NCBI RefSeq assembly: GCF_014196835.1
Contig: NZ_JACIEK010000001.1
Span: 1,066,283-1,130,282, forward strand
Source of the DNA: Aureimonas pseudogalii
Lineage (GTDB): Bacteria > Pseudomonadota > Alphaproteobacteria > Rhizobiales > Rhizobiaceae
DNA length: 64,000 bases
Reading direction: 5' to 3'
In this document: positions 7,641-48,080 of the stretch, piece by piece
How positions within the stretch are numbered: position 1 is the stretch's first letter
Layout: every line of letters starts with the position of its first letter
Made by a program: the position numbers and the translations under genes
Notes under the pieces: model-generated
Told to the model about the DNA's origin: nothing
The model's database searches: none
The model's input: the letters and a program-made list of their open reading frames with translations, nothing else

Positions 7641-7643
7641 TCC

Positions 7644-8096
7644 TCAACGCTCCGCAGCATTCTTTCCCACGTCCGACCAGGACCGGAAGACATTCCAGAG
7701 CTCAAGAACCACCATCGTGGACCAGCCGATGAAACCGGAGAATGCACCTCCGGCAGTGAGGAAGGCCATCAGGAACCCAAGGGAGACCTGAGACCAGATG
7801 CCGACGCCGACCAGAGAGGCGAAGGCGCGGATGTGGGGCGAGAAGGCGAACCCTTCGAACGTCCCGTTGATGGTGAGCGCCGCGAGGCGGAGCACGGCAC
7901 ACAGGCCGATGACGGCGCTCCACGTCCCTTCGTCGCCCCACGCCGCGATGAAGGCGAAGGACGGCGATTTGCCGAACATGGTGGGGTCGAGTTGCAGACC
8001 GAACCAGAGGCCCACGGCGGGCCAGACCATGACCCATTCGGAAACCCGGATCGGGAAGTGATCCGCGACGCCGCGGTAGACGCGGACGATGATCAT
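7644..8096 (-). CDS. Multi-pass membrane protein, putative holin
   Basis: 150 aa with about four hydrophobic segments (VMVWPAVGLWFGLQL; AVIGLCAVLRLAALTI; AFASLVGVGIWSQVSLGFLM; FIGWSTMVVLELWNVF). The start ATG 8094-8096 overlaps the endolysin stop as ATGA. Its place directly behind the endolysin makes a role in membrane permeabilisation likely. The family is not recognised. Confidence 0.65.
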   Translation of the reverse strand: MIIVRVYRGVADHFPIRVSEWVMVWPAVGLWFGLQLDPTMFGKSPSFAFIAAWGDEGTWSAVIGLCAVLRLAALTINGTFEGFAFSPHIRAFASLVGVGIWSQVSLGFLMAFLTAGGAFSGFIGWSTMVVLELWNVFRSWSDVGKNAAER

Positions 8097-9268
8097 ACGT
8101 GCCGCCCCTCGCGATAGGCCTGCACCTGCTCTTGGACGAAGCGCGCCCCGTAGTAGGCGCCGATCCCGGCCAAGACAGCGCCGACGATCCAAGGGGCTGC
8201 CCCGCCTAGAGCCGCCCAGATCATCTTGCCGGTGGTGATATGGCCCACCACGTCATCGACAGAGACCGTGCCATCCACCACGCCGCCCACGATCGATGCT
8301 CCGGCTGCGATGAGGCCGCCTGTCTTGAGTGCCTGCCCCTGCTGGATCGACGGGGCGTCCTTAAGCGTCTTAGCGGTCGCCTCGGCGCGTTCTGGCGCCA
8401 CGGGGCGCTGCGGGGCCTTGATGAGATCGGACAGGAGCGCGTCGCTGATCTCGCCCGTCAGAGCGAGCGTGTTGTCGGCCTGGAAGGCGAGGATGGCGTT
8501 GCGGGTGCGCGCGCCCATCTTGCCGTCCACGTTGCCGACCTCGGGGTAGCCGCGCTCGCGGAGAAGCTGCTGCACCTTCTCGATGAGGTCTTTGGGGGGT
8601 GGCGGCGTCATCGCCCCTTTTGACAGCGAAACCGCTGCCACATAGGGCTTTGAGGTGGCGGTCTGATCGGCGCCTGCGAACACCGTCAGCGCCTTCGCAT
8701 ACAGCGCTTCGACCTCGGCGAGCCCGATTGCCCCGCCGTTGATCGCCTTGCGGCATGCCTTCACGTCGCCCCGATCCGCCATGGCGTTGCATCCCCGCTT
8801 GGCCCATTCGCGCACCGCCGTGGAGAAAGCCGTAGCGGGATCGCGCAGCGCATCCGGGTTGTCGCCGAAGCCGAGCGCGGTGTAGTTCTCGCGCCCGGTG
8901 GTCTGCATCATGCCGGAGCCGCGGAACATCCAGCCGTCGTTCGACCCGGAGCGGTTCCCCATCCGGCCGTTGTAGACCTTGTTCGCGAGCTTCTGCGGCT
9001 GGCGCACGAAGGGCTGCGCCGCGGCGTCCGTCTTGAACCGTGACGGCCATACCGCCCGGATGCGGGCCGCGCTCGTGTAGTTCAGACTTTCGACAATGAG
9101 CCGGAGCCCGCCCGTCTCGACGCCGACGTTGGCGAAGAACAGCGCCATCCGCTGCTTGGTGGTGATCCCTGCGGCTTCGGCCTGGGGCCAGCCGTCGATC
9201 ACGGCCGCCACCAGTTCGGGCTTGGCGTTCGGGAACAGCTTCTTAAGTTGGGCTGCGGTGACGGGCAT
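8093..9268 (-). CDS. Endolysin: GH19-like muramidase/chitinase fold, peptidoglycan-binding domain and membrane tail
   Basis: 391 aa. Residues 1-190 are a glycoside hydrolase family 19-like domain: the catalytic Glu lies in ANVGVETGGLRL and the substrate region in FRGSGMMQTTGRENY. Residues about 215-280 form a PG_binding_1 domain (VQQLLRERGYPEVGNVDGKM; GARTRNAILAFQ). The C-terminus (IWAALGGAAPWIVGAVLAGI) is one hydrophobic segment, so the enzyme may be membrane-tethered until triggered. The start is ATG 9266-9268 (MPVTAAQLKKLFP); the open frame upstream is read-through of a terminator region. It should cut peptidoglycan at lysis. Confidence 0.88.
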   Translation of the reverse strand: MPVTAAQLKKLFPNAKPELVAAVIDGWPQAEAAGITTKQRMALFFANVGVETGGLRLIVESLNYTSAARIRAVWPSRFKTDAAAQPFVRQPQKLANKVYNGRMGNRSGSNDGWMFRGSGMMQTTGRENYTALGFGDNPDALRDPATAFSTAVREWAKRGCNAMADRGDVKACRKAINGGAIGLAEVEALYAKALTVFAGADQTATSKPYVAAVSLSKGAMTPPPPKDLIEKVQQLLRERGYPEVGNVDGKMGARTRNAILAFQADNTLALTGEISDALLSDLIKAPQRPVAPERAEATAKTLKDAPSIQQGQALKTGGLIAAGASIVGGVVDGTVSVDDVVGHITTGKMIWAALGGAAPWIVGAVLAGIGAYYGARFVQEQVQAYREGRHV

Positions 9269-9282
9269 GTGGACCTCGCATG

Positions 9283-9310
9283 AAAAAGGCGCCCCGATGT
9301 GGAGCGCCTT
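9283..9310 (-). terminator. Intrinsic terminator upstream of the endolysin
   Basis: On the minus strand AAGGCGC (9310-9304) pairs with GCGCCTT (9292-9286), and TTTTT follows. It sits between the stop at 9337 and the endolysin start at 9268. Confidence 0.75.
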
Positions 9311-9336
9311 GGATGGAATGGGGTGGTGGTGGTTGG

Positions 9337-9726
9337 TTAGGTCAGGCTGTCCAGCAGCAACTCGATTTCCCAATCGTCCGCGCAGCAGCCGTTCCACGAG
9401 GTGCGCCGCAAATGTGCAATCCGCGCCGCGTTCTCCTCCAGCGTCAAAGGCTTGAACCGGAGAAGATCGGTAAGCGCCTGTCGTTCGGCCTGCGTCGCTG
9501 CCTGATAACGGGCTTCGCGATCTGCCGCATCTGCCGGCGCGCTTCCCTTGGGGTAGTCGTTGTCCTCCGCAGCCTGAACCCACGCTGCGAAGAGTGAGCC
9601 GTGACGATCGGCCGTCATCTGCATCATGGAGATACCTGCGGTCAGGCCGCCAGCAGACGTTGCGAGTGCGTAGGCGCCGAAGCTGTGGCCGAGAAAGCCA
9701 CGGCGTGATAGAGTGGTGGAAGCCAT
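9337..9726 (-). CDS. Hypothetical exported protein with twin-arginine-like N-terminus
   Basis: 129 aa from ATG 9724-9726. The N-terminus MASTTLSRRGFLGHSFGAYA has an SRRGFLG motif like Tat signal peptides, followed by a mildly hydrophobic stretch. The rest is acidic and helical, with a CC pair in WNGCCADDWEIELLLDSLT. It may be a prophage moron. No family is recognised. Confidence 0.5.
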   Translation of the reverse strand: MASTTLSRRGFLGHSFGAYALATSAGGLTAGISMMQMTADRHGSLFAAWVQAAEDNDYPKGSAPADAADREARYQAATQAERQALTDLLRFKPLTLEENAARIAHLRRTSWNGCCADDWEIELLLDSLT

Positions 9727-9759
9727 CTGTCGGTTCTCCAAAATGGGTGGGTGGCGACA

Positions 9760-9795
9760 GGCCCGGCGGGATTGCAGTCCCGGCCGGGCCATTTT
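9760..9795 (+). terminator. GC-rich hairpin with T-tract on the plus strand
   Basis: GGCCCGGC and GCCGGGCC arms, with further internal pairing, are followed by ATTTTC on the plus strand. No plus-strand gene precedes it closely, so it may work as a barrier against opposing transcription, or be bidirectional behind the antirepressor gene. Confidence 0.5.
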
Positions 9796-9798
9796 CAT

Positions 9799-10578
9799 TC
9801 AGTTGAGCGGCTGGTTCAGCAACTCGGCGATCTTCACCAAGCCCTTCGCCGTCACCATGCACCGCGTCGAAACGCGCTCGCGGCGCTCGCTGTCGAGATA
9901 CAGGTGGTCGTCGTGTTCCAAATATCCGGCGCGGCGCTTGTCGTCATAGGCGAGCCAGTTCTTGTTCCCTGGCCGCTTGAAGATCCACTTCCGTCCGTCG
10001 AGGAACCGGATGAAGTCGTCTCTGCGCATGTTGAGGGTCTTCGCCGCGTCCGTCAGGCACATGGAGCCTGTCGCAGCTTCAAGCCGCTCCAGCTTCTTCA
10101 CTTGAACCGACTGCTCGGCGATGATCTCGTCCTTCTTAGCGTTCTCGGCCTGAAGGTGGTTCACCACGCCGAGCATGACGGCCGGGTCGGAATAGTCGAT
10201 CATGGCTGGACGCGGCTGAAGAAGTTCCGCCTCCATCGCCTCAAAGGCATCGATGTATCGGAGCTTCCAGCGGAGCGCCTTCTTGCCCGTGAAGCCCATC
10301 GACAGGATCGTGAAACCGCGGCGGTCCATCTCAAAGCAGCGATGCTGCTGCGAACCGGTAGCTGGCAGGGTGTAGAACCCTTCCCCAAAATTGGGGAGGC
10401 CCTCTCCGATCAGCTTGTCGATATCGCGGATCACATGATCGTGGCGCTTCTCGAAGAAGGAGGCCACGTCCCGGCTGTTGGCGAAGACTTCCCCGTTCCG
10501 CTGGAAGACGATCGGCTCCTGCTCAAACGGGACGCCATTGCCCTGCACGGGGGCAAGGCTCATATTTGGGTTGCTCAT
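9799..10578 (-). CDS. Antirepressor: Rha-like N-domain plus KilA-C domain
   Basis: 259 aa. Residues 20-115 match the phage Rha family (VFANSRDVASFFEKRHDHVI; FTILSMGFTGKKALRWKLRY). Residues about 165-255 match the KilA-C/ANT DNA-binding domain (LTDAAKTLNMRRDDFIRFL; VTAKGLVKIAELLNQ). Antirepressors of this type inactivate CI-like repressors or act as lytic regulators. The gene follows an Arc-like gene by 12 bp in the same direction, and a second Arc/Mnt-like gene is divergent. This is the gene order of phage P22 immI (mnt, arc, ant). Confidence 0.85.
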   Translation of the reverse strand: MSNPNMSLAPVQGNGVPFEQEPIVFQRNGEVFANSRDVASFFEKRHDHVIRDIDKLIGEGLPNFGEGFYTLPATGSQQHRCFEMDRRGFTILSMGFTGKKALRWKLRYIDAFEAMEAELLQPRPAMIDYSDPAVMLGVVNHLQAENAKKDEIIAEQSVQVKKLERLEAATGSMCLTDAAKTLNMRRDDFIRFLDGRKWIFKRPGNKNWLAYDDKRRAGYLEHDDHLYLDSERRERVSTRCMVTAKGLVKIAELLNQPLN

Positions 10579-20417: not shown

Positions 20418-20441
20418 GAAAAAGGCGCCACGCGGGCGCCT
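20418..20441 (-). terminator. Intrinsic terminator inside the late block
   Basis: On the minus strand AGGCGCC (20441-20435) pairs with GGCGCCT (20429-20423), followed by TTTTTC. It lies between the stop at 20473 and the next start at 20403. Confidence 0.75.
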
Positions 20442-26042: not shown

Positions 26043-26069
26043 AAAAAGGCCGCCCCGAATGGAGCGGCC
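26043..26069 (-). terminator. Intrinsic terminator behind the capsid gene
   Basis: On the minus strand a 9-bp stem (26069-26061 with 26056-26048) closes an ATTC loop and is followed by TTTTT. It lies 27 bp after the capsid stop. Strong terminators behind major capsid genes often set capsid excess, but downstream tail genes need read-through. Confidence 0.88.
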
Positions 26070-26095
26070 CACTGATGTCCTGATGCTGCGAAGGC

Positions 26096-27109
26096 TTACG
26101 AGGCGGTCGAGGTGCCGTTCAGGTCGGCGACGACAGCCATGGCGGCTTCGTTGCGAACGATCATCGTCAGCTCGGCGTTAAGCACGACCGGCTTGCCGTC
26201 CGCGTTCGGGTCGGCCTCGTCCTCGGCGATCTTGCGAAGCCAGGCCTTCTCGATCTTGTCCTTGTCGATGAAGAACGCATTCCGAGAAAGGTCGGTGCCC
26301 GCCGCGGTGGCGCGCGCCATCTGACGGTTCGGAACCACCTCGATGATGCCGTAGTCGGACAGGTAGGCGTCGGCCGCACCGACGATCGTTACCTGCTTGC
26401 TGGACGAGGCCGCGAAGCGCGTCTGCGCAACGGAGGCGTCCGACATGAAGGTGGAAAACACCTGCTTCAGATACGGGCTGACCATCAGCATATCGACGTT
26501 GCCGCCCGCGATGTAGCCGGCGGCGATGCCCTGGTCGAGGAGCGCCTTCGTGAAGGCGCGCTTCGTACCGTTCGTCGCGGCGTCCACCGCACCCGTGGAG
26601 GTGTTGTAGCCACCCGAAGCGCCACCGGTACCCATGAGGTCGTTGGTGGCGAGCCAGGCGCGGAGACCGGCCATACGGCGGGCGACCGAGGACGAACCGG
26701 CGACCGATGCCTGATTGCTCAGCATGGCCACTTCGATATCGACCTTTATCTCCTGACCCTTTTTAATTTTTTCGTAGGAGCTGTCGGTCGTCTTGCCGGC
26801 CTTCTTCACCGCCTCCTGGGTGTTGGAGATGATGAAGCGCTTCGAGAAGATCTGCGTGAAGTTCTTCACGCGGTTGGTGCCGGTGATCGGGTCGAAGGTG
26901 TAGATGTCACCTTCCACCTTGGCATTGTTGATGTCCGGCGCGGCCAGCGCGTCGAGCTGCCAGACGGGCTCGGTGCCGTCGATCGTGACATCGCCCGTGT
27001 TGGAGTAGAGCGGGGTTTCCGCCGGGGTCAGCCGGGACAGAATGTCGAGAAAGGTTTCCCGACGCGAGTTCGACTTGTAGGTGTCGAGGGTGTTTGCGAC
27101 CTGAACCAT
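26096..27109 (-). CDS. Major capsid protein, SU10/DUF5309-like
   Basis: 337 aa. The pattern LSRLTPAETPLYSNTGDVTI, RVKNFTQIFSKRFIISNTQE, YGIIEVVPNRQM and AWLRKIAEDEADPN is that of HK97-fold capsid proteins of the SU10 type. It follows the scaffold gene by 14 bp, as expected. No N-terminal cleavage segment is apparent. It should build the icosahedral head. Confidence 0.85.
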   Translation of the reverse strand: MVQVANTLDTYKSNSRRETFLDILSRLTPAETPLYSNTGDVTIDGTEPVWQLDALAAPDINNAKVEGDIYTFDPITGTNRVKNFTQIFSKRFIISNTQEAVKKAGKTTDSSYEKIKKGQEIKVDIEVAMLSNQASVAGSSSVARRMAGLRAWLATNDLMGTGGASGGYNTSTGAVDAATNGTKRAFTKALLDQGIAAGYIAGGNVDMLMVSPYLKQVFSTFMSDASVAQTRFAASSSKQVTIVGAADAYLSDYGIIEVVPNRQMARATAAGTDLSRNAFFIDKDKIEKAWLRKIAEDEADPNADGKPVVLNAELTMIVRNEAAMAVVADLNGTSTAS

Positions 27110-29364: not shown

Positions 29365-29564
29365 TCTGGCCTCTCCGGTACAGGCATCCAATGCGTTGGC
29401 GCCCTATCAAGGTAGCCATTGAAGCCGTTGAAGCCATCTTCCCCAAGCACCGGATACAGGTTCCAAGATCCCGTTGAGACCTGAACTTCGTCAGCCATGA
29501 ACCGGGCCAAAAGAATTGTAGACCCATCCTTCGGCGCGGTTTCGATAGGCTGCCAGTCGCTCAT
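29361..29564 (-). CDS. DUF551-like small protein
   Basis: The opening MSDWQPIETAPKDGSTILLA and the end APTHWMPVPERPE are the two hallmarks of this widespread short phage protein family (consensus W.PI.TAPKDG ... PTHWMP.P). The function of the family is unknown. It overlaps portal and neighbour as ATGA. Confidence 0.8.
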   Translation of the reverse strand: MSDWQPIETAPKDGSTILLARFMADEVQVSTGSWNLYPVLGEDGFNGFNGYLDRAPTHWMPVPERPE

Positions 29565-31987
29565 TCTGGCCTCGCAATGTTCGCGGTGTTCAGGTTGACC
29601 TTCAGCGCCATGGCGATCTGCGAAAGCTGGCTCTCGATGTCCATCTCGCGATAGCGGGCCTCCTGCCGCATGCCCGCTTCCTCACGGGCGATCAGCAGCT
29701 TGGCCTCGTTCTCCTCACGGAGAAGCTGAAGGCGGGCCGCAGCCTCTTCGCGCATCAGCTGGAGCTTCAACGAAGCCTCGGCCTGACGGTTCTGCGTGTC
29801 CATCAGCAGCTTAGCCTGTGCGATCTCGTTCTCACGAGTGGCACGAGCCTCTTCCGACTGCTGCGTCATCTGGAACTCGGCCACCTTGGCCTGCTGCTCG
29901 AACTGCATCTCCTGCTGGCGGATCTGCAGCTTGGCCTGCGCTTCCATCATCTTCGGATCGGGCTGGCCCTTGCCGGCTTCCTGTGCCTGCTGGCGAAGCT
30001 GGGCGACCTGCTCCTGACTGATGGACGGGAAGAACGCCTCGGGGTTCCGAATGCCGGCGGCCTCGGCCATCTTCTGATAGCTCTCCGTCAGGTGTCCGAC
30101 GTTCAGCTGCTCGTTGAAGGGGCCAAACTGGCCGATGATCTGCTCCTGCTTGGCCGCGACGGCAGACAGGGCCGCGAGATCACGGTCGCGAGAGCCGGTG
30201 CCGAGACCGATGTTGATCGTCACGTCCATGTCGGCGTTCCACGAGCGCGGATCGATCTCGACCAGCTTGCCGTGAAGGCGGACCATCTTGGAATGATCCT
30301 GATGCTTCGTGATGAGCCGCAGGATGCACCGGAAGATGCGTTGCATGCCACCGCACTCGGCGATGTTGCGGGCGTATTCCTCATTTTTCGTCTGCACCGC
30401 AGCTTGGACGACGTTGACGGCCGTCGCGGACTGGTTCTGCAACGCGTTCATGTCAAGGGCGGACGTGCGCTGCGAGGCGCCCGTGCGCTTTTCCCCGACC
30501 GCATCCATGATGTCCATGAGCGGCAAGAGCTTGTCGGCGATGAACGGGATCTGGACCGGTGCCGGCGGCATTGCGCCAGCCTTCTTGAGAAGAATGATGC
30601 CGTCCGGTGTAGGTTCGAGAACCTCGTCCATGTTCTCGACATCGCCGATCACTACGGCGCGCTGCGGAGCGATGTTCTGGTAGGCGTTGTTCAGGACGCC
30701 GCGCAGCACCACCGTCTTGATGCGCTGGATGTCGCCAAGCTCCTCATAGAGCCCCTTGCCGCGCCATGCATGAGCCCGAGGGTTCGGCACGATGTCGGAG
30801 AACGGGAGATCGTCACCCCATTCGTCGTTGGCGAGGATCGAACGCTTGCCCGTCAGACCGCCCATGACGATGCGACGCCGCTCGGCAATGCCATCCCCAT
30901 CGGTGTCGATGAGCACGTAGCACTCGTAAACGTCCACGAGTTGCGTCGATTGATCGGGCGACACGTCGGCATCGTCGAAGCTGTCGTCACGCGCGCGGCG
31001 AGAGGCATCCCGCTCCATGTCGTTGGACAGGGGGATCTCGTCCACCTTGTCGCGCGGATAGCCTTCCTTGACCAGTTCCGAGCGGGTCGTGCGGCGGACG
31101 TGGGCGCAGAAGCGCACCGTCTCGTCCAGAGCGGTCGCACGGCGCTCGATGATGAACTCCTCGTGCGGCACGGCGGCGATCTGGAGCCGGCCATTCGAGC
31201 GGATGCGCTTGACCTTGAAGTCGTGCAGGCGTGGCGCACGCGGATCGGCGTCGTCCTCGCTCGTGTCCTTCGTGTCGCCGGTCTGACGCTCGTCGTCCTC
31301 GGCATCAACGAGATCGCCCACCAGCGCGCTCGGATCGATCGCAGTCGCCATCATAGGCGCAGGAGGCATGCCGGGCGCTGGCGGGGCTTCCATGGCTCCC
31401 AGAAGCGCCGACATCATCATGGCGGGCGGCGGCGGGGGCGGTGCGACCCAATCGGGATCGGCGTAGGTCTCGTGTTCTAGGATCTCCTCCACGTCCGCAT
31501 CGCTGATGACCATGCGGTATTGGTCTTCGGTCAACGCGGAGTACGTGTCGGTCGTGTAGTCGGGCGTGTTGTCCCACCAGTGCTTCACGATGCCGTTGCC
31601 GAGAAGCAGACCATCCGAGATCGCAGAGCGGAAATTGCGGTAGCCTTCGCACTCGCGCATGACGACGTAGTTCACGAGGTCGGACGCCTGATCCGCATAC
31701 TCCTCGTGCTCGGTGCGGGTGGGCTCGTAGCTCACGATGCGATCGGAGCCGAAGAACACACGCAGGAGGCTCGGCATGATGAGCCCGTGGATGTCGGACA
31801 CGTCACGCGACACGACCTGCGAGCCGTGCTTACCCATTGCGGGAAGGTCGGTCTCGCCGTCGAAGAACTTGAGCGCGAGTTCGCGTATTTTGTCGCGATC
31901 GGTCCCGCCGTAAAGCTGCGCGTCGGCGATCTGGCTATCGACCTTCGTCGCCAGATCATCGTCCGACATGCGCTTGCGTCGTGCCAT
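29561..31987 (-). CDS. Portal protein
   Basis: 808 aa. The N-terminal half has the podoviral portal pattern (SQVVSRDVSDIHGLIMPSLL; FRSAISDGLLLGNGIVKHWW; DIQRIKTVVLRGVLNNAYQN). The last about 150 residues are a Gln/Glu/Ala coiled coil (LQIRQQEMQFEQQAKVAEFQ), like the barrel helix of P22-type portals. A Pro-rich loop (WVAPPPPPPAMMM) interrupts the wing. Twelve copies should form the DNA gate and terminase dock. Confidence 0.85.
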   Translation of the reverse strand: MARRKRMSDDDLATKVDSQIADAQLYGGTDRDKIRELALKFFDGETDLPAMGKHGSQVVSRDVSDIHGLIMPSLLRVFFGSDRIVSYEPTRTEHEEYADQASDLVNYVVMRECEGYRNFRSAISDGLLLGNGIVKHWWDNTPDYTTDTYSALTEDQYRMVISDADVEEILEHETYADPDWVAPPPPPPAMMMSALLGAMEAPPAPGMPPAPMMATAIDPSALVGDLVDAEDDERQTGDTKDTSEDDADPRAPRLHDFKVKRIRSNGRLQIAAVPHEEFIIERRATALDETVRFCAHVRRTTRSELVKEGYPRDKVDEIPLSNDMERDASRRARDDSFDDADVSPDQSTQLVDVYECYVLIDTDGDGIAERRRIVMGGLTGKRSILANDEWGDDLPFSDIVPNPRAHAWRGKGLYEELGDIQRIKTVVLRGVLNNAYQNIAPQRAVVIGDVENMDEVLEPTPDGIILLKKAGAMPPAPVQIPFIADKLLPLMDIMDAVGEKRTGASQRTSALDMNALQNQSATAVNVVQAAVQTKNEEYARNIAECGGMQRIFRCILRLITKHQDHSKMVRLHGKLVEIDPRSWNADMDVTINIGLGTGSRDRDLAALSAVAAKQEQIIGQFGPFNEQLNVGHLTESYQKMAEAAGIRNPEAFFPSISQEQVAQLRQQAQEAGKGQPDPKMMEAQAKLQIRQQEMQFEQQAKVAEFQMTQQSEEARATRENEIAQAKLLMDTQNRQAEASLKLQLMREEAAARLQLLREENEAKLLIAREEAGMRQEARYREMDIESQLSQIAMALKVNLNTANIARPE

Positions 31988-32253
31988 TACACGTAGCGCC
32001 CGCGCAGCACATTGCCGGATTGCAGCAGATCTTGTCCTTCGGTCAGTTCGAAGCTGGGGGTCATCTTCCTGCTCACAAAGTGCAACGCCTCCTGAAGCGT
32101 AGAGAATGCTGCGACGTACGTGCTGATTTCGTAATTCGACATCGCCTGTTCGCCCACGTAGAAGCCTCCCTCGGGAGCGGCGAAGATCGTCATCGCAGTT
32201 TTCGGCTTGTCGCTCATCTTGTCGCTCATATCGCTACCCATCTCTCGCTTCAT
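31987..32253 (-). CDS. Small hypothetical protein between terminase and portal
   Basis: 88 aa from ATG 32251-32253, which overlaps the terminase stop as TGATG. It contains MTIFAAPEGGFYVGEQAMSN and FSTLQEALHFVSRKM. No family is recognised. Confidence 0.6.
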   Translation of the reverse strand: MKREMGSDMSDKMSDKPKTAMTIFAAPEGGFYVGEQAMSNYEISTYVAAFSTLQEALHFVSRKMTPSFELTEGQDLLQSGNVLRGRYV

Positions 32254-33689
32254 CAGATGAACCCTCGCAGGTCGCGCTTCGGCATCTTGAACGCCACCTG
32301 CTTCGGTAGCTCGGCGGATCGTAGCATCATCATCGCGTATCGGGTTGCTGAGAGTAGATCGTCGATCTCTTTCACCACCTTGCCGTTCTTTCGGTGGTAG
32401 AGACGAAATTCCTCGAACCACTCGCTGATGTTCGAGAACACCTTCCAGCGGTTCGTCTGCATCCGATCCAGCATTTCCATCAGGCCAGCCTCGACACTGT
32501 TCGAGCCATCCTCGAATGTCGCACGGTCTGGCAGGAGGTTCATGCCTTGTGATCGATACTGGCTAGCGAGGTTCGGTCCCGCTGCCGTGTCGTTGTTGCC
32601 GTCGTGAGGCCACGCCCACGGGAGTTTTTCGCCCCACGGCTTCAGTGAAGCAGCGTGAAGGACCGGCGTTGCCTCGCGGCGACGATAGCCTTTCGTGACG
32701 TAGATCGTGTCGCTGTCGCGGTCCCATGCGAGTTCGGCCGCCGCAGTCGGGTGGTCCCAACCGAAGTCGAGCCCGCCGATACGAGGCCAATGGTCTGGGA
32801 TCGGGAATGGCGCGATCGTAATCAGGCTTTCCTCGACCGGGAAGATGCGTCCCGATCCGAGGGACGGCACACCCTTCGTGCGGGCTTCTCGCTCGTGAGC
32901 CGGGTAGCTCGCAATGATCTTGTTGCGCTCTTCGTCCGAGTAGTGCTCAGCGTCGTCGATCGTCATCGTGACGGTCGTTCGATCCTTGCTCGGCTCCAGA
33001 AGATACCGCTGTACCACCGCCGACATTCCCCGAAGCGGTGTGAACGTCATCATGACGCTGCCCTTCGTGGCGTTGGTACGTGTGATGCCCTCAAAATAGA
33101 GGTCTTCGGGGCACTCCTCATCGAACCAGACGAAATCAACCGTATTGGCCTGCCACTTCGACCGGCCCTGATCGTAGCTCTTGAGGTAGAGCGTGGATCG
33201 TTCGCCAGTGACATGCTGGACCGTCACGGTATCAAGGGCATTGCTGACGCCCATGCGCCGCGTGCGGGCAACGATGGCAGACTGCGGGATGAAGCCTGTG
33301 CCCCAATCCTCTTCGCGATCAGGTGGCCCCACGAGAAGTCGTTGCACACCGTCGCGGGTCAGCTCGGCAGACTCCGACCCGGCGATGACGACAACCGCCT
33401 TCTCGAACCTACGGCCGTCCCACCACTCCGGATATTGGCCTGTGAGATGCATGGCGACCTCGGCGGCGCCGGAAAGCGTCTTGCCGAGCTGATTGCCAGC
33501 GAGAAACAGGCGCTCCCGAAAGCTGTGTCCCGCCCGATGAAACTCCCGCTGCTTGGCGTAGGGCTCGTAGTGGCGAAGGCGGTTAGTGTTTCGTCTTACC
33601 CGTTGAAGACGCTCCAACCTCGTCAGAAGTGCCGATCGCTGCGCGGAGGGCAGAGATTGCAGCATCGAGAGTGTTGTCGTCGATGTCAT
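32253..33689 (-). CDS. Terminase large subunit
   Basis: 478 aa. Walker A-like AGNQLGKT near residue 65 and Walker B VDFVWFDEECP near residue 185 define the packaging ATPase. IGGLDFGWDHPTA near residue 308 and the C-terminal DDLLSATRYAMMM supply the RNase H-like nuclease acidic residues. The start overlaps the small-subunit gene by about 80-107 bp, depending on which ATG is used. It should cut and pump DNA; a headful mechanism is likely but not shown. Confidence 0.92.
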   Translation of the reverse strand: MTSTTTLSMLQSLPSAQRSALLTRLERLQRVRRNTNRLRHYEPYAKQREFHRAGHSFRERLFLAGNQLGKTLSGAAEVAMHLTGQYPEWWDGRRFEKAVVVIAGSESAELTRDGVQRLLVGPPDREEDWGTGFIPQSAIVARTRRMGVSNALDTVTVQHVTGERSTLYLKSYDQGRSKWQANTVDFVWFDEECPEDLYFEGITRTNATKGSVMMTFTPLRGMSAVVQRYLLEPSKDRTTVTMTIDDAEHYSDEERNKIIASYPAHEREARTKGVPSLGSGRIFPVEESLITIAPFPIPDHWPRIGGLDFGWDHPTAAAELAWDRDSDTIYVTKGYRRREATPVLHAASLKPWGEKLPWAWPHDGNNDTAAGPNLASQYRSQGMNLLPDRATFEDGSNSVEAGLMEMLDRMQTNRWKVFSNISEWFEEFRLYHRKNGKVVKEIDDLLSATRYAMMMLRSAELPKQVAFKMPKRDLRGFI

Positions 33690-34868: not shown

Positions 34869-36976
34869 TTCTTGCCTTTCCCGCCCGAGGACTTGCCCGA
34901 GCTGCTGGATTTCGAGCTGGACGAGGCCGAGGACCGGCTAGAGCCCCCCACCTTGCCGCCATCGGTTCCAACCGCGCTGTCACGCTCGCCGAAGCCCGCG
35001 AAGCCGCCGCTCATGGTTCCGACACCGCCAGCACGACCCGTGCCGTTCGTACCCGTGGCAGAGCGGTTGCCGCCCATGCCGCTGGAGCCCATACCGTTCA
35101 TCCCACCGCCGAACATGCCGCCAAGGCCGGAGCCGATCCCGCCACGAGCCGCGGGGGCTGAGGCCATAGGTGCCGTTGCCGGTGCAGCAGCAGGAGCGGC
35201 AACGCGACCACCCAGCCAGCCGCCGACGATGCCGCCGATCGGACCAGCGACGACCGATCCGAGGGCAGCCCCGGCAATGCGACCCGGCGTCAGGCCAAGG
35301 CGCGAGGCCAGAGACGGCGCCTGCGTAACGGTCGGGGCCACCGGAGCCGCGGAGAACGTCGGCCTGGCTGTCGGCGTCGTAACAGCACGAGACACGACGG
35401 GCGCCGCACGCGAGACAGGAGCGGCGATCGTGCGTGTTGGAGCGACGGGGCGAGAGGTCGGGGCAGCCACCGCGGAGATCGTGCGAGGTGCGCTCGTGGG
35501 CGTCGGGACCGATGTCGGACCAAGAACGCCGCCGAGAGCATTCGCGGGCAACTGACCCTCGATGCTGCGGGGCGATCCGATCTTGCCGGCGAAGCTCGTG
35601 GCAGCAGGCGCAGAGAGAAGCGCATTGCCGACTGGAGCCGCTTGGGCCGCGCTCACGCCAAGAAGGCTGCCGAGAGACGGCGCGGTCTTCGTCGGCGTGC
35701 TGGTGCCGAGACGGCTGGCGAGGTTCGTCGCCTGTGCGGGCGTGAGACCGGCTGCCGAGATGGAAGCTGAAGCCGTCCGCAGGCTGGCGAGCGATTGCGT
35801 CGGGGTGAAGGCACCGCCGAGGCGAGTGGCGAGGTTTCCTTCCTGTGCTGCGGTGAAGCCTGTGGTGCGAGTGGGTGCCGAGACGGTCGGAGCCGAGACC
35901 GCACGTGTCGGCGTCGAGGCAACGCGCGAGCCCTTAGCCGATGCCGCGAGGCCGGACGGCAGGGACGCTGCGGAGCGGATGGATGCCGCGCTCGGCGCTG
36001 CCACGGAGATCGATCGCGGAGCGCTGGTGGGTGTGGGTGCCATCGCGAGAGAAGTTTGCGGCGACAGGCGGGATGCGAGGTTGCTGGCCTGTGCGGCGGT
36101 CAGTGCCGTGCTTGCGGGGCGGTTCGGGCCTTGGACAGGACGAGACGGCGCAAGGCCGGTGGTGACGGACTGCGGGGCGACACGAGATCCGGTGACGCCC
36201 GCTTTCTCGGCGAAGCGATCCATCATGGACTTCGGCATGTTGCCGGGAGCGAAGCTGCCGAAGCGGGTAGCATCGGGCTGGGTCTGTGGAGTTGTTTGCG
36301 CTTTCTGCAAAGAAGCCCCCACAGGCCGCGCACTCGGTGTCGGGATGCCTGTCGTGGTGTTCGGACCGACACGGCCACCACGGGACGACTGCAGCCCAGC
36401 CGGGAGAGACGAGGCAGCGGCCACGAGAGACGGGTTGCTGCGAGTTGAGACGGACCGAGGCGCCGTGGTTGGCGTTGGAACAGCGCGCCCGCTGGTCTGT
36501 GCCTCGATGGCTCGAAGCGCACCCGTTGCGCTCGGTGCTGGCGCATAGGCGGTCACGGCAGGGGCGCGGGAGGGATTGGGCTGACGGAACCCCACGGCGG
36601 AATTGATGGAGCGGTTCTGCGGGTCGGCGTAGTAGCGATGGCCGCTGGTGGACGTGACCTGTTTCAGACCCTTCGGCAGGTTCTTCGATGCGCCGGGCGT
36701 CGCGTAGAACGTGCCCGTGTGGATCGGACCAGTTGTCTGCACCTCACGGATCGCCTGCTCGGCGAGATCGCGATAGGCGTTGACGCCCTTCGGCAGAGCC
36801 TTGCCGTAGGCGTTAAACTCCTTGGAGTTGGCGACAACCTGCTGCGGGGTGATCCCCATCATGCGGGCGCGGTTTTCGATCACCGAGACGATGGCGCGCA
36901 TGTCGGCGGCGCGCTGTGCTCGGGTGCCGTGGGTGGCCTCCCCTAGCACTACGTCTTGGACTGTACGAGCGACCAT
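34865..36976 (-). CDS. SleB-like cell-wall hydrolase with long low-complexity tail
   Basis: 703 aa. Residues 5-125 look like a cell-wall hydrolase 2 (SleB) domain: GEATHGTRAQRAADMRAIVS, VIENRARMMGITPQQVV and FYATPGASKNLP. The next 480 residues are Ala/Pro/Ser/Thr-rich and repetitive, with copies of PTSAPRxIS and TxAQxxNLASRLG. The C-terminus has a Gly-rich hydrophobic part (GAALGSVVAGPIGGIVGGWL) and a Ser/Lys tail. It is the first larger late gene after the gene-free gap. A virion-borne hydrolase is likely. Confidence 0.7.
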   Translation of the reverse strand: MVARTVQDVVLGEATHGTRAQRAADMRAIVSVIENRARMMGITPQQVVANSKEFNAYGKALPKGVNAYRDLAEQAIREVQTTGPIHTGTFYATPGASKNLPKGLKQVTSTSGHRYYADPQNRSINSAVGFRQPNPSRAPAVTAYAPAPSATGALRAIEAQTSGRAVPTPTTAPRSVSTRSNPSLVAAASSLPAGLQSSRGGRVGPNTTTGIPTPSARPVGASLQKAQTTPQTQPDATRFGSFAPGNMPKSMMDRFAEKAGVTGSRVAPQSVTTGLAPSRPVQGPNRPASTALTAAQASNLASRLSPQTSLAMAPTPTSAPRSISVAAPSAASIRSAASLPSGLAASAKGSRVASTPTRAVSAPTVSAPTRTTGFTAAQEGNLATRLGGAFTPTQSLASLRTASASISAAGLTPAQATNLASRLGTSTPTKTAPSLGSLLGVSAAQAAPVGNALLSAPAATSFAGKIGSPRSIEGQLPANALGGVLGPTSVPTPTSAPRTISAVAAPTSRPVAPTRTIAAPVSRAAPVVSRAVTTPTARPTFSAAPVAPTVTQAPSLASRLGLTPGRIAGAALGSVVAGPIGGIVGGWLGGRVAAPAAAPATAPMASAPAARGGIGSGLGGMFGGGMNGMGSSGMGGNRSATGTNGTGRAGGVGTMSGGFAGFGERDSAVGTDGGKVGGSSRSSASSSSKSSSSGKSSGGKGKK

Positions 36977-36986
36977 CGTTCAAGCC

Positions 36987-37061
36987 TTAGAAGAGGATGG
37001 TGGCGAAGCCGAGGGCAACGATCGCTAGGAGGAAGGCGGCAAGGAAGCGTTCGTCATCCAT
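36987..37061 (-). CDS. 24-aa membrane microprotein
   Basis: ATG 37059-37061 has a good ribosome site (GAAAGAGG) at proper distance. The product MDDERFLAAFLLAIVALGFA, with TILF at the end, is one membrane helix with an acidic N-terminus. It would be the first translated frame of the late transcript. Function unknown. Confidence 0.5.
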   Translation of the reverse strand: MDDERFLAAFLLAIVALGFATILF

Positions 37062-37527
37062 GCGGCCTCTTTCCAAAATGCAGAAAGTCCCACGGGCGTG
37101 AACCGGCGGGGGTGATTTCCTAATCGGCTGATTTCGACTGTTTCCCACCCTAAACCCCTTCATAGCAAGGGTTACGAGGTGATTTCCTCAGGACGTGTCG
37201 GGTTCGACACCGACTTCCCATCAACGCTGTTTGCAGGCGACGATGATAGGCTGAATTGACCTGCGTTCGCTGCGTGTCCTTCCACGCCGCCGTCCTGATC
37301 TGAATGAGGCTGAACGTGCGCGTTCCCCATACATGGAGGGGGTATGTGCGCCGTTAATTCCTATCCCGCCGTGTCGTATGGTGAGACGACAAGCTCACCC
37401 GGCCGTTCAGCTTCAACTGTTCATGCCGCCCTGAGGGCACAAGCCACCATGATGCGGAGGACGATCAGTCCGCAACACCCCGGCGTGTCTCGTGGCCGCA
37501 CAGTCAGGCAAATTCGTCATCGCCAAT
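37062..37527. promoter_or_regulatory. 466-bp gene-free region between NusG-like gene and late genes
   Basis: No convincing gene on either strand. It contains an 11-bp direct repeat GGTGATTTCCT (37111-37121 and 37178-37188). A hairpin AACCCCTT/AAGGGTT (about 37153-37174) lies between the copies. A perfect 6-bp hairpin GTGTCG-GGTT-CGACAC follows at 37195-37210. It should hold the late promoter or an antitermination site, and perhaps an origin. Confidence 0.55.
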
Positions 37528-38088
37528 CTAGGCTACTAGGCGAAGAGCGTCAACATCTACAGTGACCTCTTCCATCACGCCAACGCACTCTTCAAGTCGA
37601 ACAAGTGCCTTGTTGCGGTTCATGATCTTTGCGACGACGCCATTCTTGGTCGCGAAGATACCAGACGCGACCTGAACAAGCTCGCCGCCGCTTAGACTTA
37701 AACGCTCACCCTTCACTTGTCGCGAGTCACGACGACGTTGCAACACGTTGGCTGCAATATCGTTGAATTCGCCACGAAACTCGGCGTCGAACAAAGGCTC
37801 AATCGCTTTCGCTGAGATCGGCATCGGCTTGCCGTTCACACCTAGGAACGCTTTTACTCCGTCACACCGGCGGGCAAAGCCGAAGTGGCGCGCAGCTTCT
37901 TCCATCCCCACGAACACATATCCGACCATCAGCGGCGAGAACCGCTCGATCTCAGCTTTGGTGCGGTGATGAAGTCGGACGCTGTAGATCCGGGGGCTAT
38001 AGGCTGCGAAGCCTTTGTCAGAAAGCGAGGCAACAGCCCGACCTTCACATCGGGGATTAGTGCGAGCGCAGAACCACGAGAGCGTCAT
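37528..38088 (-). CDS. NusG-like transcription antitermination factor
   Basis: 186 aa. The N-terminal domain has the NGN pattern: WFCARTNPRCEGRAVASLSD, then a basic stretch and FSPLMVGYVFVGM, then GVKAFLGVNGKP. The C-terminal part holds GELVQVASGIFATKNGVVAK and ALVRLEECVGVMEEVTVDVD, like a KOW domain. NusG/RfaH-type proteins bind the RNA polymerase clamp and reduce pausing and termination. It is the last gene before the gap leading to the late operon, a place like that of lambda Q. That role is inference from position. Confidence 0.85.
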   Translation of the reverse strand: MTLSWFCARTNPRCEGRAVASLSDKGFAAYSPRIYSVRLHHRTKAEIERFSPLMVGYVFVGMEEAARHFGFARRCDGVKAFLGVNGKPMPISAKAIEPLFDAEFRGEFNDIAANVLQRRRDSRQVKGERLSLSGGELVQVASGIFATKNGVVAKIMNRNKALVRLEECVGVMEEVTVDVDALRLVA

Positions 38089-38297
38089 GCTGCGCCCCCA
38101 ATCGAATGTGGCCTGTAAGTACCGTACCCCCGGTAGAACGGAGATGGAGACGGCGTCGCGATGGCGATACCGTTCGCAATTAGTAGGTCGCCATGGCCGC
38201 CGTAGCTTATCCGGGTTGCAGCGCGAGGCAGATGGTTACGCCCCATGTCTGAGCAAATGGGTGCGCCATATTGGCTATGAGTGATAACGACATCCAT
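38085..38297 (-). CDS. Hypothetical protein (70 aa)
   Basis: It starts MDVVITHSQYGAPICSDMGR and ends YRGYGTYRPHSIGGAA. GGAGAGG precedes the ATG. It overlaps the NusG-like gene as ATGA, so the two are coupled. Function unknown. Confidence 0.6.
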   Translation of the reverse strand: MDVVITHSQYGAPICSDMGRNHLPRAATRISYGGHGDLLIANGIAIATPSPSPFYRGYGTYRPHSIGGAA

Positions 38298-38356
38298 TGT
38301 GTTTGCCTCTCCACTGCGGTAGTTTCAAGTGTCCCCGCCAGAGGATAGATCAGGAG

Positions 38357-38387
38357 CCCGCTCGCACTGCCCGGTGCGGCGGGTTTT
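38357..38387 (+). terminator. Terminator-like hairpin oriented on the plus strand
   Basis: CCCGC-T-CGCAC (38357-38367) pairs with GTGCGGCGGG (38374-38383) around TGCCCG, with one bulge, and TTTT follows. It points against the leftward operon, where there is no plus-strand gene. It could block antisense transcription. Confidence 0.55.
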
Positions 38388-39754: not shown

Positions 39755-39918
39755 GCCTTCGACTCCGTGACAACTGTGAAAAGCAAATCACCTGCGCGGC
39801 ACGCCACGACACCCGCAATGAACGACCAGCCGTTGAAGCCAGAGTTCAGCGCGCCGTCGATGAGAGCGATGATGACAAACGCGGGCCACGTGATGAGGAA
39901 GTGCCGAAACGTGCTCAT
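39751..39918 (-). CDS. 55-aa two-helix membrane protein
   Basis: MSTFRHFLITWPAFVIIALI and GWSFIAGVVACRAGDLLFTV give two hydrophobic segments. The start ATG 39916-39918 overlaps the stop of the DnaA-domain gene; its stop overlaps the next start as ATGA. Confidence 0.65.
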   Translation of the reverse strand: MSTFRHFLITWPAFVIIALIDGALNSGFNGWSFIAGVVACRAGDLLFTVVTESKA

Positions 39919-40427
39919 TCCGGCACCTCATCCAACGGGAGGACCGGGATGCCGAGAGCCTTCGCCTTTTCCGGCCACTTCCCGACCGCGTAGAGCAGGG
40001 TTGTGTGGTCACGGCACAGAAGGCGCGCCATCTCGGGATAGCTCACCCACGGGCATCTGCGGCGGATCTCATAAGCTGCGTGCTGGCGAGCGTTAATGAC
40101 CTTCGCAGAGCCGCGCGTGCCGATGATGACGTGCGTGGGAACCTGATGGAATGCGGACACCTCGTTCAGCACGTCGCGGGCAGTAGCGGCGCTCGGGGTA
40201 TAGCGGGCTAGCCGCTCTTCTAGGATCTCGATCTTGTCCTTGAGGTCGAAGATGAGGTCGGTCTTTTCCTTCGCGTCCTTCTCGGCGCGTCGCTTGGCGT
40301 GCTTCTCGGCTTGCAGTTCGGTTTCCAGTTCCGCGATCTGGCTGCGGAGGATCGGAACCAGTTCAGGGTCAATGCGGCGCTGAACGATACCGCGCTGCGT
40401 GTTGGTGGCGATGGCGATGAAGTTCAT
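39915..40427 (-). CDS. Coiled-coil protein with DnaA domain IV-like C-terminus
   Basis: 170 aa. Residues 28-75 form a coiled coil (LRSQIAELETELQAEKHAKR). Residues 95-155 resemble the DnaA origin-binding domain: VINARQHAAYEIRRRCPWVS and then MARLLCRDHTTLLYAVGK, with the hallmark DHTT(L/V)xxA. There is no AAA ATPase part. It may bind DnaA-box-like sites in the phage or host origin, or compete with host DnaA. It is in the replication gene block with GapR and RusA. Confidence 0.8.
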   Translation of the reverse strand: MNFIAIATNTQRGIVQRRIDPELVPILRSQIAELETELQAEKHAKRRAEKDAKEKTDLIFDLKDKIEILEERLARYTPSAATARDVLNEVSAFHQVPTHVIIGTRGSAKVINARQHAAYEIRRRCPWVSYPEMARLLCRDHTTLLYAVGKWPEKAKALGIPVLPLDEVPE

Positions 40428-45765: not shown

Positions 45766-46638
45766 TCATGCGACGGACCGGTAGAGTTCGTGCCAGAGGT
45801 CGCCGTCCTTGGGTTTCAGGAGGTGCGACGGAACACGGCAGTCAGGATGGCCGGGAACGCGGCCCCAATGCTCGACGAGCCATCGGCGGCTCACTCGGGC
45901 CATGTTGAGGGCCTTGTTCCAGTAGGCGTCGTCCTCGACGACCTGGGGCTTCGGAGCCGGGACGGCGCCCTCATCGCTGAACCGATCCTGGTTCAACCAC
46001 GTCGTCGCCTGCGGGCAGAAAGCCGATGGCTTGGGATGCTTTCGGGCGAAATGGACGACGGCGGCCATGATCGCCTCAACGGGCACGCCGCGCTTCACCG
46101 CCCGGTCGAACGCCAGTTTTGCAGGCTTCTTCGGGTTCGGACCATCTCGCTTCGGGTATGCAGCCCAAAAGGCATCGAAGGGATCAGGTTCGGAAGAGGT
46201 AGGTTTCTCCGGCTTAAGCGCAGCCGCGCTCGCAGACGCGCATGCGTCTTTTGATAGTTTATCTGGTTCTGGTTCTGTATGGTTAAGCCGTGGCTTCGCT
46301 AAGTCGTTGTTTTTCTTAGGATGAGAGCCGTTTTCGCGCTGTTTATCTTGGAGTTTCGCGAGAGTTTCGAGCTCCGAAACCGCGCGATAATTCGTCAGAA
46401 ACTCTCCTGAAACTTGGATCTTATCCGCTTCAATCAGGGCGGAACGGATGGTCGTCCACTTCCGAATGGAGCATCCCAGCAAGCCTGAAATGTACCGGTT
46501 GTCGTCGGGAAGGTTGCCGCCCTGCATGTAAATGAGGTCGAGGATGACGCGGTACGCGCACTTCACCTCGAAAGGCATTCCGATCGTGCCTTCGATGAAA
46601 TCGCGAGGATAGGCTTTGTAGTATGGGAGACCATTCAT
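45766..46638 (-). CDS. DUF1376-type replication protein
   Basis: 290 aa. LPYYKAYPRDFIEGTIGMPF, then AYRVILDLIYMQGGNLPDDN, is the DUF1376 opening. The C-terminal part (FDAFWAAYPKRDGPNPKKPA; FCPQATTWLNQDRFSD) resembles phage replisome organisers and helicase loaders. It overlaps dnaB by 4 bp, which supports a loader role for that helicase. Confidence 0.8.
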   Translation of the reverse strand: MNGLPYYKAYPRDFIEGTIGMPFEVKCAYRVILDLIYMQGGNLPDDNRYISGLLGCSIRKWTTIRSALIEADKIQVSGEFLTNYRAVSELETLAKLQDKQRENGSHPKKNNDLAKPRLNHTEPEPDKLSKDACASASAAALKPEKPTSSEPDPFDAFWAAYPKRDGPNPKKPAKLAFDRAVKRGVPVEAIMAAVVHFARKHPKPSAFCPQATTWLNQDRFSDEGAVPAPKPQVVEDDAYWNKALNMARVSRRWLVEHWGRVPGHPDCRVPSHLLKPKDGDLWHELYRSVA

Positions 46639-48080
46639 CCGGCGTACCTTTCCCCGTTACGGGCAGCCGAGAACGCCATGTCGCACCACAGGTTAATCGT
46701 GGTGACGGGGCCGTTTCTCTGCTTGGCGATGATGAACTCAAGACGGTTCTGGCAGGCGGCGAGCGTCGCGATGCGCTCGTTCTCCTTCTCCGTATCCGTC
46801 TCTTCGGTGCGTTCGAGGTAGTAGGCTTCCCGGTGAAGAAACACGACGACATCGGCGTCCTGCTCGATGTTGCCGCTGTCTCGGAGATCCGACAGGATCG
46901 GACGCTTGTTGTCGCGCTGGGCGAGCTGGCGGGAGAGCTGCGAAAGCAGCATCACCGCGATGTCGTATTCCTTGGCGTAGTCCTTGAGCGCGCGGGTGAT
47001 CTCGCCGACTTCGTTGTTCCGGTTGCCGCGGTAGTGCGCGCCGGGTTCAATGAAGCCGAGGTGATCCAGCATCAGGCATTCGAGGCGGGGCTGACCATTG
47101 CGCTCAAAGCGCTCGATCATCGCTTCGATCTTCATGCGGATGTCGAACACGTTGCCGCCGGCCTCCTCGACGAGGATCGGGTACGTGTGCAGCCGCTGGT
47201 TCATCGCCTCGACGCAGGCCAGACCGGCCTCGTCCATGCGACCCTGCAGGATGTCCACGTAGGGAACCGGGTTCTGCGTCGCGAGCGTCAGGTCAGAGAG
47301 GCCACGGGCGATCAGCTTGGCCGCGTCCATCTCCAGCGAGAGGATGCCGACGCCATGGCCCTTGCGAGCCGCACGGAGAGCGGTGGACATCATCACCGAG
47401 GACTTCCCCATCGACGGACGGGCGCCCACGAGGATCAGGTCCTTGCGCTGCATTCCGCCGGTGATGCGATCTACGTCCGCATAGCCCCAGGTCACGCCCG
47501 TCAGGCCCGCCCCGTTCTTCATCGCCTCACGAGCGGCGGCGATCGCAGCGTCACCTGCTTCGCCAGCGGACATGCGGGACCGGCGGGACGCACTGCGACG
47601 TACGCCGCTTCCCAACTCTTCCAGCACCGTCCCGGCCGTCTTGATCAGCTTGCCGACCGACGCCGAGGGATCGCGAGCCGCGATGGACGCGAGTTCCATC
47701 TGCTCAGCGAAGGCAAGGCGCGCCCACTGCTCGACGACCGACTTCGCCACCTTGTCGATCGACGCGACGGTGTGGACGCACTCGCCGATGAGGCGGGCGA
47801 GGTACTGGTGAATGCCGAGACCGTGACGGGTCTTGAACTCGAAATCGAAGCCTTCCGGCAGCAGCTTAGCGACGACCCGAACGTCTGTCGTGCCAGACCG
47901 CTCGAAAGCGTCCTGAATGGCCCGATAAATGATGCGATGGTCTTCGGCGCGGAAATGCTGCTCGTTGAGATAGGGCTGGACGCGGGCGAGGCCGTTGCCT
48001 TGAAGCAGGACGCCGAGAAGCGACTGCTCCAATTCCGGCACATAGCCATCCGCCCCTTGGGTGGTGACGAGCGCGTTCAT
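46635..48080 (-). CDS. dnaB: Replicative DNA helicase DnaB-like
   Basis: 481 aa. The N-terminal domain starts PELEQSLLGVLLQGNG and has FRAEDHRIIYRAIQDA. The RecA-type domain has Walker A GARPSMGKSS near residue 220, then GILSLEMDAAKLIARG, MLDHLGFIEPG (Walker B) and LLSQLSRQLAQRDNKRPILS with the arginine-finger region. It should unwind phage DNA as a hexamer. It is an early gene of the leftward operon that starts at the cro-like gene. Confidence 0.92.
   Translation of the reverse strand: MNALVTTQGADGYVPELEQSLLGVLLQGNGLARVQPYLNEQHFRAEDHRIIYRAIQDAFERSGTTDVRVVAKLLPEGFDFEFKTRHGLGIHQYLARLIGECVHTVASIDKVAKSVVEQWARLAFAEQMELASIAARDPSASVGKLIKTAGTVLEELGSGVRRSASRRSRMSAGEAGDAAIAAAREAMKNGAGLTGVTWGYADVDRITGGMQRKDLILVGARPSMGKSSVMMSTALRAARKGHGVGILSLEMDAAKLIARGLSDLTLATQNPVPYVDILQGRMDEAGLACVEAMNQRLHTYPILVEEAGGNVFDIRMKIEAMIERFERNGQPRLECLMLDHLGFIEPGAHYRGNRNNEVGEITRALKDYAKEYDIAVMLLSQLSRQLAQRDNKRPILSDLRDSGNIEQDADVVVFLHREAYYLERTEETDTEKENERIATLAACQNRLEFIIAKQRNGPVTTINLWCDMAFSAARNGERYAG

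What the first reader, a model, noticed from the sequence alone, without database searches (positions are those of the whole stretch)
37062..38088. Phage-encoded NusG paralogue placed like a Q antiterminator
The NusG-like gene is the last leftward gene before a 466-bp gene-free gap, and all virion genes lie after it. At least three strong intrinsic terminators (26043-26069, 20418-20441, 9283-9310) lie between late genes. A processive factor would be needed to read through them. Late control by a NusG-type protein instead of Q would be an unusual switch. Known NusG paralogues such as RfaH act on long host operons.
Basis: partly seen in the sequence, partly recalled or inferred. Interest (0 to 1): 0.82.

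Follow-up and report, generated by a model that had tools for sequence, protein, structure and literature searches.

The report
Phage NusG late-gene switch
A virus hidden in a bacterial chromosome carries its own version of the universal transcription factor NusG, next to a promoter and a conserved structured leader that together look like the switch that turns on its particle-building genes, a job done in textbook phages by an unrelated protein called Q.

Summary
Window 37528-38088(-) encodes an NGN-KOW NusG paralogue. It is the last early gene of a prophage in an Aureimonas-like genome; the virion genes follow leftwards. The three terminators are real and are the only ones a strict scan finds on the late strand.

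A promoter (TTGACG-17-TAGATT) has its -10 on the nusG stop codon; 10 of 29 phage nusG genes score 8/12 or more at this offset against 2 of 539 other genes. A covarying leader starts 15 nt after the -10; a covariance model built without the window finds it at 37510-37428(-), E 7e-7, next best 8 bits. In 11 of 29 loci a GGGCTCGC/GCGGGCC hairpin closes the leader, only some with a good T-tract; the window lacks it. TerL, or once a portal, follows in 28 of 29 loci. One relative is recombinant exactly at that hairpin.

Best reading: a NusG-type late antiterminator, placed like lambda Q, with LoaP-like leader logic. Function is untested; in this phage the first stop signal is unknown.

The parts
37528..38088 (-). 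NusG paralogue, NGN plus KOW, 186 aa; last gene of the early block
   Evidence: Pfam PF02357 E 8e-13; PHROG 6386; AlphaFold and Foldseek
37525..37553 (-). predicted late promoter TTGACG-17-TAGATT, its -10 on the nusG stop codon TAG
   Evidence: same geometry in 10 of 29 phage nusG genes vs 2 of 539 other genes
37428..37510 (-). conserved structured leader (P1/P2, P3, degenerate P4)
   Evidence: model R1 built without the window: 37 bits, E 7e-7, next best in window 8 bits; covariation
37428..37438 (-). GCCCTCAGGGC, counterpart of the terminator hairpin of relatives, without a T-tract
36987..37061 (-). 24-codon ORF that ends the 466-bp gap; may or may not be a gene
   Evidence: inside the 58-aa ORF 36987-37163; sequence
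32253..33689 (-). terminase large subunit (Terminase_6 type)
29561..31987 (-). SU10-type portal protein
26096..27109 (-). major head protein
   Evidence: PHROG 1328
26047..26070 (-). intrinsic terminator after the head protein gene
20423..20441 (-). intrinsic terminator in the late operon
9286..9310 (-). intrinsic terminator in the late operon
8093..9862 (-). endolysin-like ORF (probably starting near 9268)
   Evidence: PHROG 181; gene call 8093-9268
39915..40427 (-). DnaA C-terminal-domain-like early gene
46635..48080 (-). DnaB-type helicase, early gene

Best explanation
A NusG-type late antitermination switch. Read from sequence: the early leftward operon ends with the nusG paralogue; a near-consensus sigma-70-type promoter overlaps its stop codon; a structured leader begins 15 nt after the -10, so about 8-10 nt into the predicted transcript; in relatives a terminator-type hairpin starts roughly 87-110 nt after the -10; the late genes follow, with three intrinsic terminators. 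Inferred: the late promoter is on by default, but its transcripts end in the leader or in the late operon. When the early operon is induced, the paralogue accumulates and recognises the leader in the elongating polymerase, as nascent RNA hairpins (LoaP-like) or as non-template DNA (RfaH-like). Its NGN domain takes the place of housekeeping NusG on the polymerase, and the modified polymerase reads through the leader and the internal terminators to the lysis genes some 28 kb away. This is the logic of lambda Q, pR' and tR' with an unrelated protein.
For: NGN-KOW fold. Same place before TerL or portal in 28 of 29 loci, with at least three Pfam types of terminase. Promoter at the fixed offset: 10 of 29 vs 2 of 539, p 1.4e-12. 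Leader found in the window by a model built without it, next to nusG in 11 of 28 loci searched, 4 of them training rows, and in one new genome where a paralogue then turned up. Covariation: 12 of 22 pairs, 0 of 500 shuffles; group-B leaders 7 of 30 pairs. The leader keeps its distance to the -10 (15-21 nt, sd 2.0, six loci) and not to the stop codon (18-83 nt). Leader type follows NusG clade, and L062 is recombinant at the hairpin. Three terminators on the late strand.
Against: No functional data. The window has no intrinsic terminator in the gap. Of the 11 hairpins only about five have a T-rich tail. In 12 of 29 loci no promoter passed p 0.05, and model R1 misses 17 of 28 loci. Three of eight genome hits of the model, at 27-36 bits against the window's 37, are not beside a paralogue. 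The alignment behind one search was fitted to the structure and its group-B rows are uncertain; a plain MAFFT alignment of nine leaders showed only 1 of 17 pairs covarying. Part of the -35 may be kept by the Val-Asp codons. Terminators inside late operons also occur in phages without such a factor (recalled).
Confidence: 0.75

Rival explanations
1. The conserved element between nusG and terminase is the packaging site (cos or pac); promoter and hairpins are incidental.
For: Packaging sites often lie just before the terminase genes (recalled).
Against: The same leader type goes with different terminases: Terminase_6 in the window, HK97-like TerL in L060 and L081, GpA-type in L070 and L084, phiLM21-like in L072. 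It keeps its distance to a promoter and covaries as RNA.
Confidence: 0.05
2. The paralogue acts mainly by keeping housekeeping NusG and Rho off the late transcript (anti-polarity), with no role in intrinsic termination; the leader only loads it.
For: The window has a 466-nt untranslated leader without an intrinsic terminator. RfaH is known to exclude NusG and Rho (recalled; abstract of PMC7593976).
Against: Terminator-type hairpins close the leader in 11 of 29 loci, and three intrinsic terminators lie in the window's late operon. The gap shows no marked C-over-G bias except its last 70 nt.
Confidence: 0.12
3. The paralogue regulates the early operon or host genes; its place before the late genes is inherited.
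For: RfaH acts on distant operons (recalled).
Against: The place is kept beside unrelated late modules; the best leader match in the window is right beside the gene and is the only match of model R1 in its genome at E 0.01.
Confidence: 0.06

Closest known systems
Lambda Q with pR' and tR' (also phage 21 Q and AlpA)
   Same: Regulator gene, then late promoter, leader and terminator, then the late operon (lambda details recalled).
   Different: The protein is a NusG paralogue, not a Q-type nozzle protein; the conserved cis element lies downstream of the promoter start, not between -35 and -10; in the window the leader terminator is missing.
LoaP of Bacillus velezensis with the dfn leader
   Same: NusG paralogue with a leader holding RNA hairpins ahead of a terminator (passages of PMC12691694).
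   Different: Phage late operon instead of an antibiotic operon; far below the LoaP model cut-off (18 vs 125 bits); other hairpins; RNA binding untested here.
RfaH and plasmid-borne specialised NusG paralogues
   Same: NGN-KOW protein serving one long operon; plasmids carry such genes within tra operons (passages of PMC7593976).
   Different: Below the RfaH cut-off (36.9 vs 144.5 bits); C-terminal domain predicted as strands, not a helical hairpin.
'NusG-like' antiterminators annotated in Rhizobium phage RHph_TM3_3_3, Sinorhizobium phage phiLM21 and its prophage relatives
   Same: Same place at the end of the early block before terminase; PMC12429752 reports a phiLM21-type antiterminator ORF in all its phiLM21-like prophages (passages).
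   Different: There only an annotation; I saw no promoter, leader or late-control analysis. Their C-terminal parts do not align as KOW.
GafZ of the Caulobacter gene transfer agent
   Same: Alphaproteobacterial processive antitermination of a virion gene cluster (passages of PMC11150451).
   Different: GafZ is described as working with housekeeping NusA, NusG and NusE, and its binding element is placed between -10 and -35.

Membership tests
NusG/Spt5 family | NGN domain | tested here: met
   Pfam E 8e-13 over cut-off; NGN TM 0.84 to RfaH 8pen
NusG/Spt5 family | C-terminal KOW barrel | tested here: inconclusive
   Pfam KOW 14.5 bits, below cut-off 22.3; strands predicted at 137-184 with pLDDT about 75-85
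RfaH | RfaH model cut-off | tested here: not met
   36.9 vs 144.5 bits
RfaH | ops element and fold-switching helical C-terminus | tested here: inconclusive
   C-terminus predicted as strands, which a fold switch would not exclude; ops not searched
LoaP | LoaP model cut-off | tested here: not met
   18.3 vs 125 bits
LoaP | hairpin-bearing leader ahead of a terminator | tested here: inconclusive
   leader with covarying hairpins in window and relatives; closing hairpin in 11 of 29 loci, not in the window
UpxY | UpxY model cut-off | tested here: not met
   52.1 vs 100 bits
Lambda-type Q antiterminator | Q protein family | tested here: not met
   only NusG-type families matched in Pfam, PHROGs and NCBIfam
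Lambda-type Q antiterminator | gene between early and late blocks with a late promoter just downstream | tested here: met
Lambda-type Q antiterminator | terminator between late promoter and late genes | tested here: not met
   no intrinsic terminator in the window gap; hairpin present in 11 of 29 loci
Processive antiterminators | read-through of distant terminators | not testable with these tools
   needs RNA-seq or in vitro transcription

The most novel reading that the evidence does not exclude
Many alphaproteobacterial temperate phages use an undescribed class of late switch: a phage NusG paralogue with its own promoter-leader cassette, in several coevolving specificity types, exchanged as a unit between phages with unrelated late modules. 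The paralogue recognises its own structured leader and makes the polymerase terminator-resistant, so lambda Q and these NusG proteins are convergent solutions to one problem, and two prophages in one cell, as in this genome, can run separate NusG-leader pairs beside housekeeping NusG.
Probability: 0.6. Interest if true: 0.86.

Novelty: new variant of a known kind. Interest (0 to 1): 0.8.

Why it matters
Specialised NusG paralogues have been studied on bacterial and plasmid operons, and late control in phages on Q. A phage NusG with a matched promoter, leader and terminator would be an unrelated protein solution to the Q problem. It also offers a natural set of NusG-leader pairs for asking how such paralogues choose their targets, with a natural recombinant (L062) that separates the recognition cassette from the terminator and late genes.

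Tried and rejected
Rfam on the window and 16 further loci gave only tRNAs; nothing in window 36950-38450 at E up to 5. Folding the 466-nt gap alone was not significant (z -1.08); only comparison showed the element. A MAFFT alignment of nine leaders gave 1 of 17 pairs covarying; some rows were misaligned, so model R1 was built on four clean leaders without the window. PHROG 6386 over 397 genomes was uninformative because it also matches housekeeping NusG. Greedy longest-ORF gene calling was poor and was replaced. Dropped before the counts of 29 loci: L077-L079 (Bacteroidetes or Flavobacteriales, distant), further copies of phages already in the set (L071, L073, L075, L080, L082, L083, L093, L094, L098-L104) and L095 and L097 (found together with L096). 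L006 and L007 are near-identical and both kept. The terminator count (11 of 28 loci vs 1.6 in single-base shuffles) includes L007 and L091, which are not the conserved hairpin, and misses weak-tailed ones. The cos/pac reading was set aside.

Literature: nine searches of the open PMC library listed no paper on a phage-encoded NusG as a late antiterminator; searches returned none. Passages only were seen of PMC7819879, PMC7593976, PMC12429752, PMC5537653, PMC11150451 and PMC12691694; no paper was read whole. Subscription papers were not searchable.

Full report
WHAT IS THERE. The window lies in contig C1 of a 5.0-Mb genome. The nearest named relatives of its paralogue are in Aurantimonas, Aureimonas and Jiella, and same-genus genomes of the search coincide with Aureimonas records. 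Most of the window is a prophage: IMG/VR record UViG_2829993952_000002 corresponds, by my arithmetic, to window 7278-61144. The leftward early block holds a DnaB-type helicase and a DnaA-domain-like gene and ends with a 186-aa NusG paralogue at 37528-38088. After a 466-bp gap come small genes, TerL, portal, head and lysis genes, leftward. The genome also has a housekeeping nusG and a second prophage-type paralogue.

THE PROTEIN. Pfam NusG matches over cut-off, KOW weakly. AlphaFold2 on an alignment of six sequences gives pLDDT 79; the best PDB matches are NusG and RfaH, with TM 0.84 and 1.8 A to the RfaH chain of 8pen. It is below the cut-offs of the NCBIfam NusG, RfaH, UpxY and LoaP models. 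PHROG 6386 already bears the label 'transcription antiterminator'.

THE TERMINATORS.

POSITION IN RELATIVES. I assembled 29 loci with a paralogue: the window, and loci from phage records, viral contigs, genomes and one found through the RNA model. In 28 of 29 a terminase large subunit, or in L062 a portal, lies downstream in the same direction: window; L005, L060, L064, L068, L070, L076, L081, L084, L096, and the L062 portal; L066, L072, L074, L086, L087, L089, L092 by similarity to known TerL; L006, L007, L085, L088, L090, L091, L113; L008, L010, L011 by annotation, L011 across the start of a circular record. In L009 the candidate had no Pfam match, but a major capsid protein is annotated downstream. 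The terminases are of at least three Pfam types. Of the window's late genes only the two at the far end (7278-8192) had a match in the stretches fetched from four same-genus genomes and the second prophage. A regulator that keeps its place beside unrelated late modules is what a late-operon regulator would do.

THE PROMOTER. In the window TTGACG-17-TAGATT sits with its -10 on the nusG stop codon. At this fixed geometry 10 of 29 phage nusG genes reach 8 of 12 matches against 2 of 539 other genes in the same loci (Fisher p 1.4e-12); at 9 of 12 it is 6 against 0. One of the ten, L072, has a better site elsewhere. TAG is the stop in 11 of 29 nusG genes and in 71 of 569 genes of 80 aa or more in these loci, a tally that includes nusG genes. 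In L081, L072, L084 and L089 a promoter-like site lies further downstream. A free search around the stop gave p 0.05 or less in 17 of 29 loci. Some of the -35 may be kept by the protein's Val-Asp codons; the bases after the stop codon are not coding.

THE LEADER. Comparing gaps showed a shared element just after nusG. Model R1, from L060, L062, L070 and L081, finds the window at 37510-37428(-) with 37 bits, E 7e-7; the next best place in 64 kb has 8 bits. Among 28 paralogue loci, 11 have a hit directly after nusG, four of them training sequences; three further hits of 16-18 bits lie elsewhere. Over 394 genomes 8 had a hit: five beside a paralogue, one of which (L109, extended as L113) was new and confirmed by a protein profile, and three of 27-36 bits not beside one. 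On the ten-row alignment 12 of 22 pairs change on both sides, 98.9% of cells pair, and none of 500 shuffles reaches this; that alignment is fitted to the structure and its group-B rows are uncertain. A separate MAFFT alignment of six group-B leaders gives 30 pairs, 7 with changes on both sides.

ONE UNIT. In six group-A loci the leader starts 15-21 nt after the -10 (sd 2.0) though 18-83 nt after the stop codon (sd 22.3). In L087 another gene follows nusG at once, and a 41-nt stretch like L089's leader lies 431 nt after the nusG stop. A GGGCTCGC/GCGGGCC hairpin lies within 300 nt of the stop in 11 of 29 loci, of both leader types; about five (L068, L072, L074, L081, L084) have a T-rich tail and six a weak one. 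Group-B leaders go with a NusG clade of support 0.998; the window, L060, L062, L070 and L081 share leader type A and group together, but the nodes that join the window and L081 are weak, and L072 and L084, with A-like leaders, fall elsewhere. L062 matches L060 from -865 to +123 around the nusG stop and nothing further in 6 kb, while its match to L064 starts at +96; L064 also matches it in an upstream stretch (-886 to -478, 74%) and further on. The joint falls on the hairpin at +99: nusG, promoter region and leader go with one parent, terminator and first late sequences with the other.

READING. The order regulator, promoter, leader, terminator, late operon is that of lambda Q, pR' and tR' (recalled). 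The leader logic resembles LoaP, a NusG paralogue that needs a leader hairpin ahead of a terminator (passages of PMC12691694). In the window the closing hairpin is degenerate and the gap has no intrinsic terminator, so the first barrier may be Rho on the long untranslated leader, or the terminator at 26 kb. Binding, read-through and the effect on late genes are inferred.

WHAT IS KNOWN. Annotators have called such genes NusG-like antiterminators. PMC12429752 reports an antiterminator ORF in all its phiLM21-like prophages and puts it at the end of the phiLM21 early region (passages). PMC7593976 mentions rfaH-like genes on prophages and NusG paralogues in plasmid tra operons (passages). I found no description of the promoter, the leader or a late-control role in the searched library.

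Noticed in passing
window 37188-37298 (-): A tRNA-like element in the same gap: closing stem TCAGGAC/GTCCTGA, a D-arm-like conserved core and a T-arm-like hairpin. The core 22-mer occurs in 18 viral contigs; of 14 distinct ones 12 have a 7-bp closing stem nearby, against 31% with shuffled arms. No Rfam match in the window or in ten of these contigs and no ARAGORN call at it. Only two of the 18, the window's own phage and the L092 phage, had a paralogue in the stretch held.
   Followed up: partly
G000 contig C1 about 782,600 (locus L068): A second prophage in the same genome has its own NusG paralogue with a group-B leader, a closing hairpin with a good T-tract and a GpA-type terminase.
   Followed up: partly
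L008 1347-1422, L010 15284-15360, L092 10681-10754: tRNA genes lie between the paralogue and the terminase (two annotated tRNA-Met, one CAT tRNA by ARAGORN).
   Followed up: no
L008 and L010: In these two paralogues the part after the NGN domain does not look like KOW.
   Followed up: no
window 9799-10578 (-): An antirepressor-like gene (PHROG 63) sits in the late block near the lysis genes.
   Followed up: no
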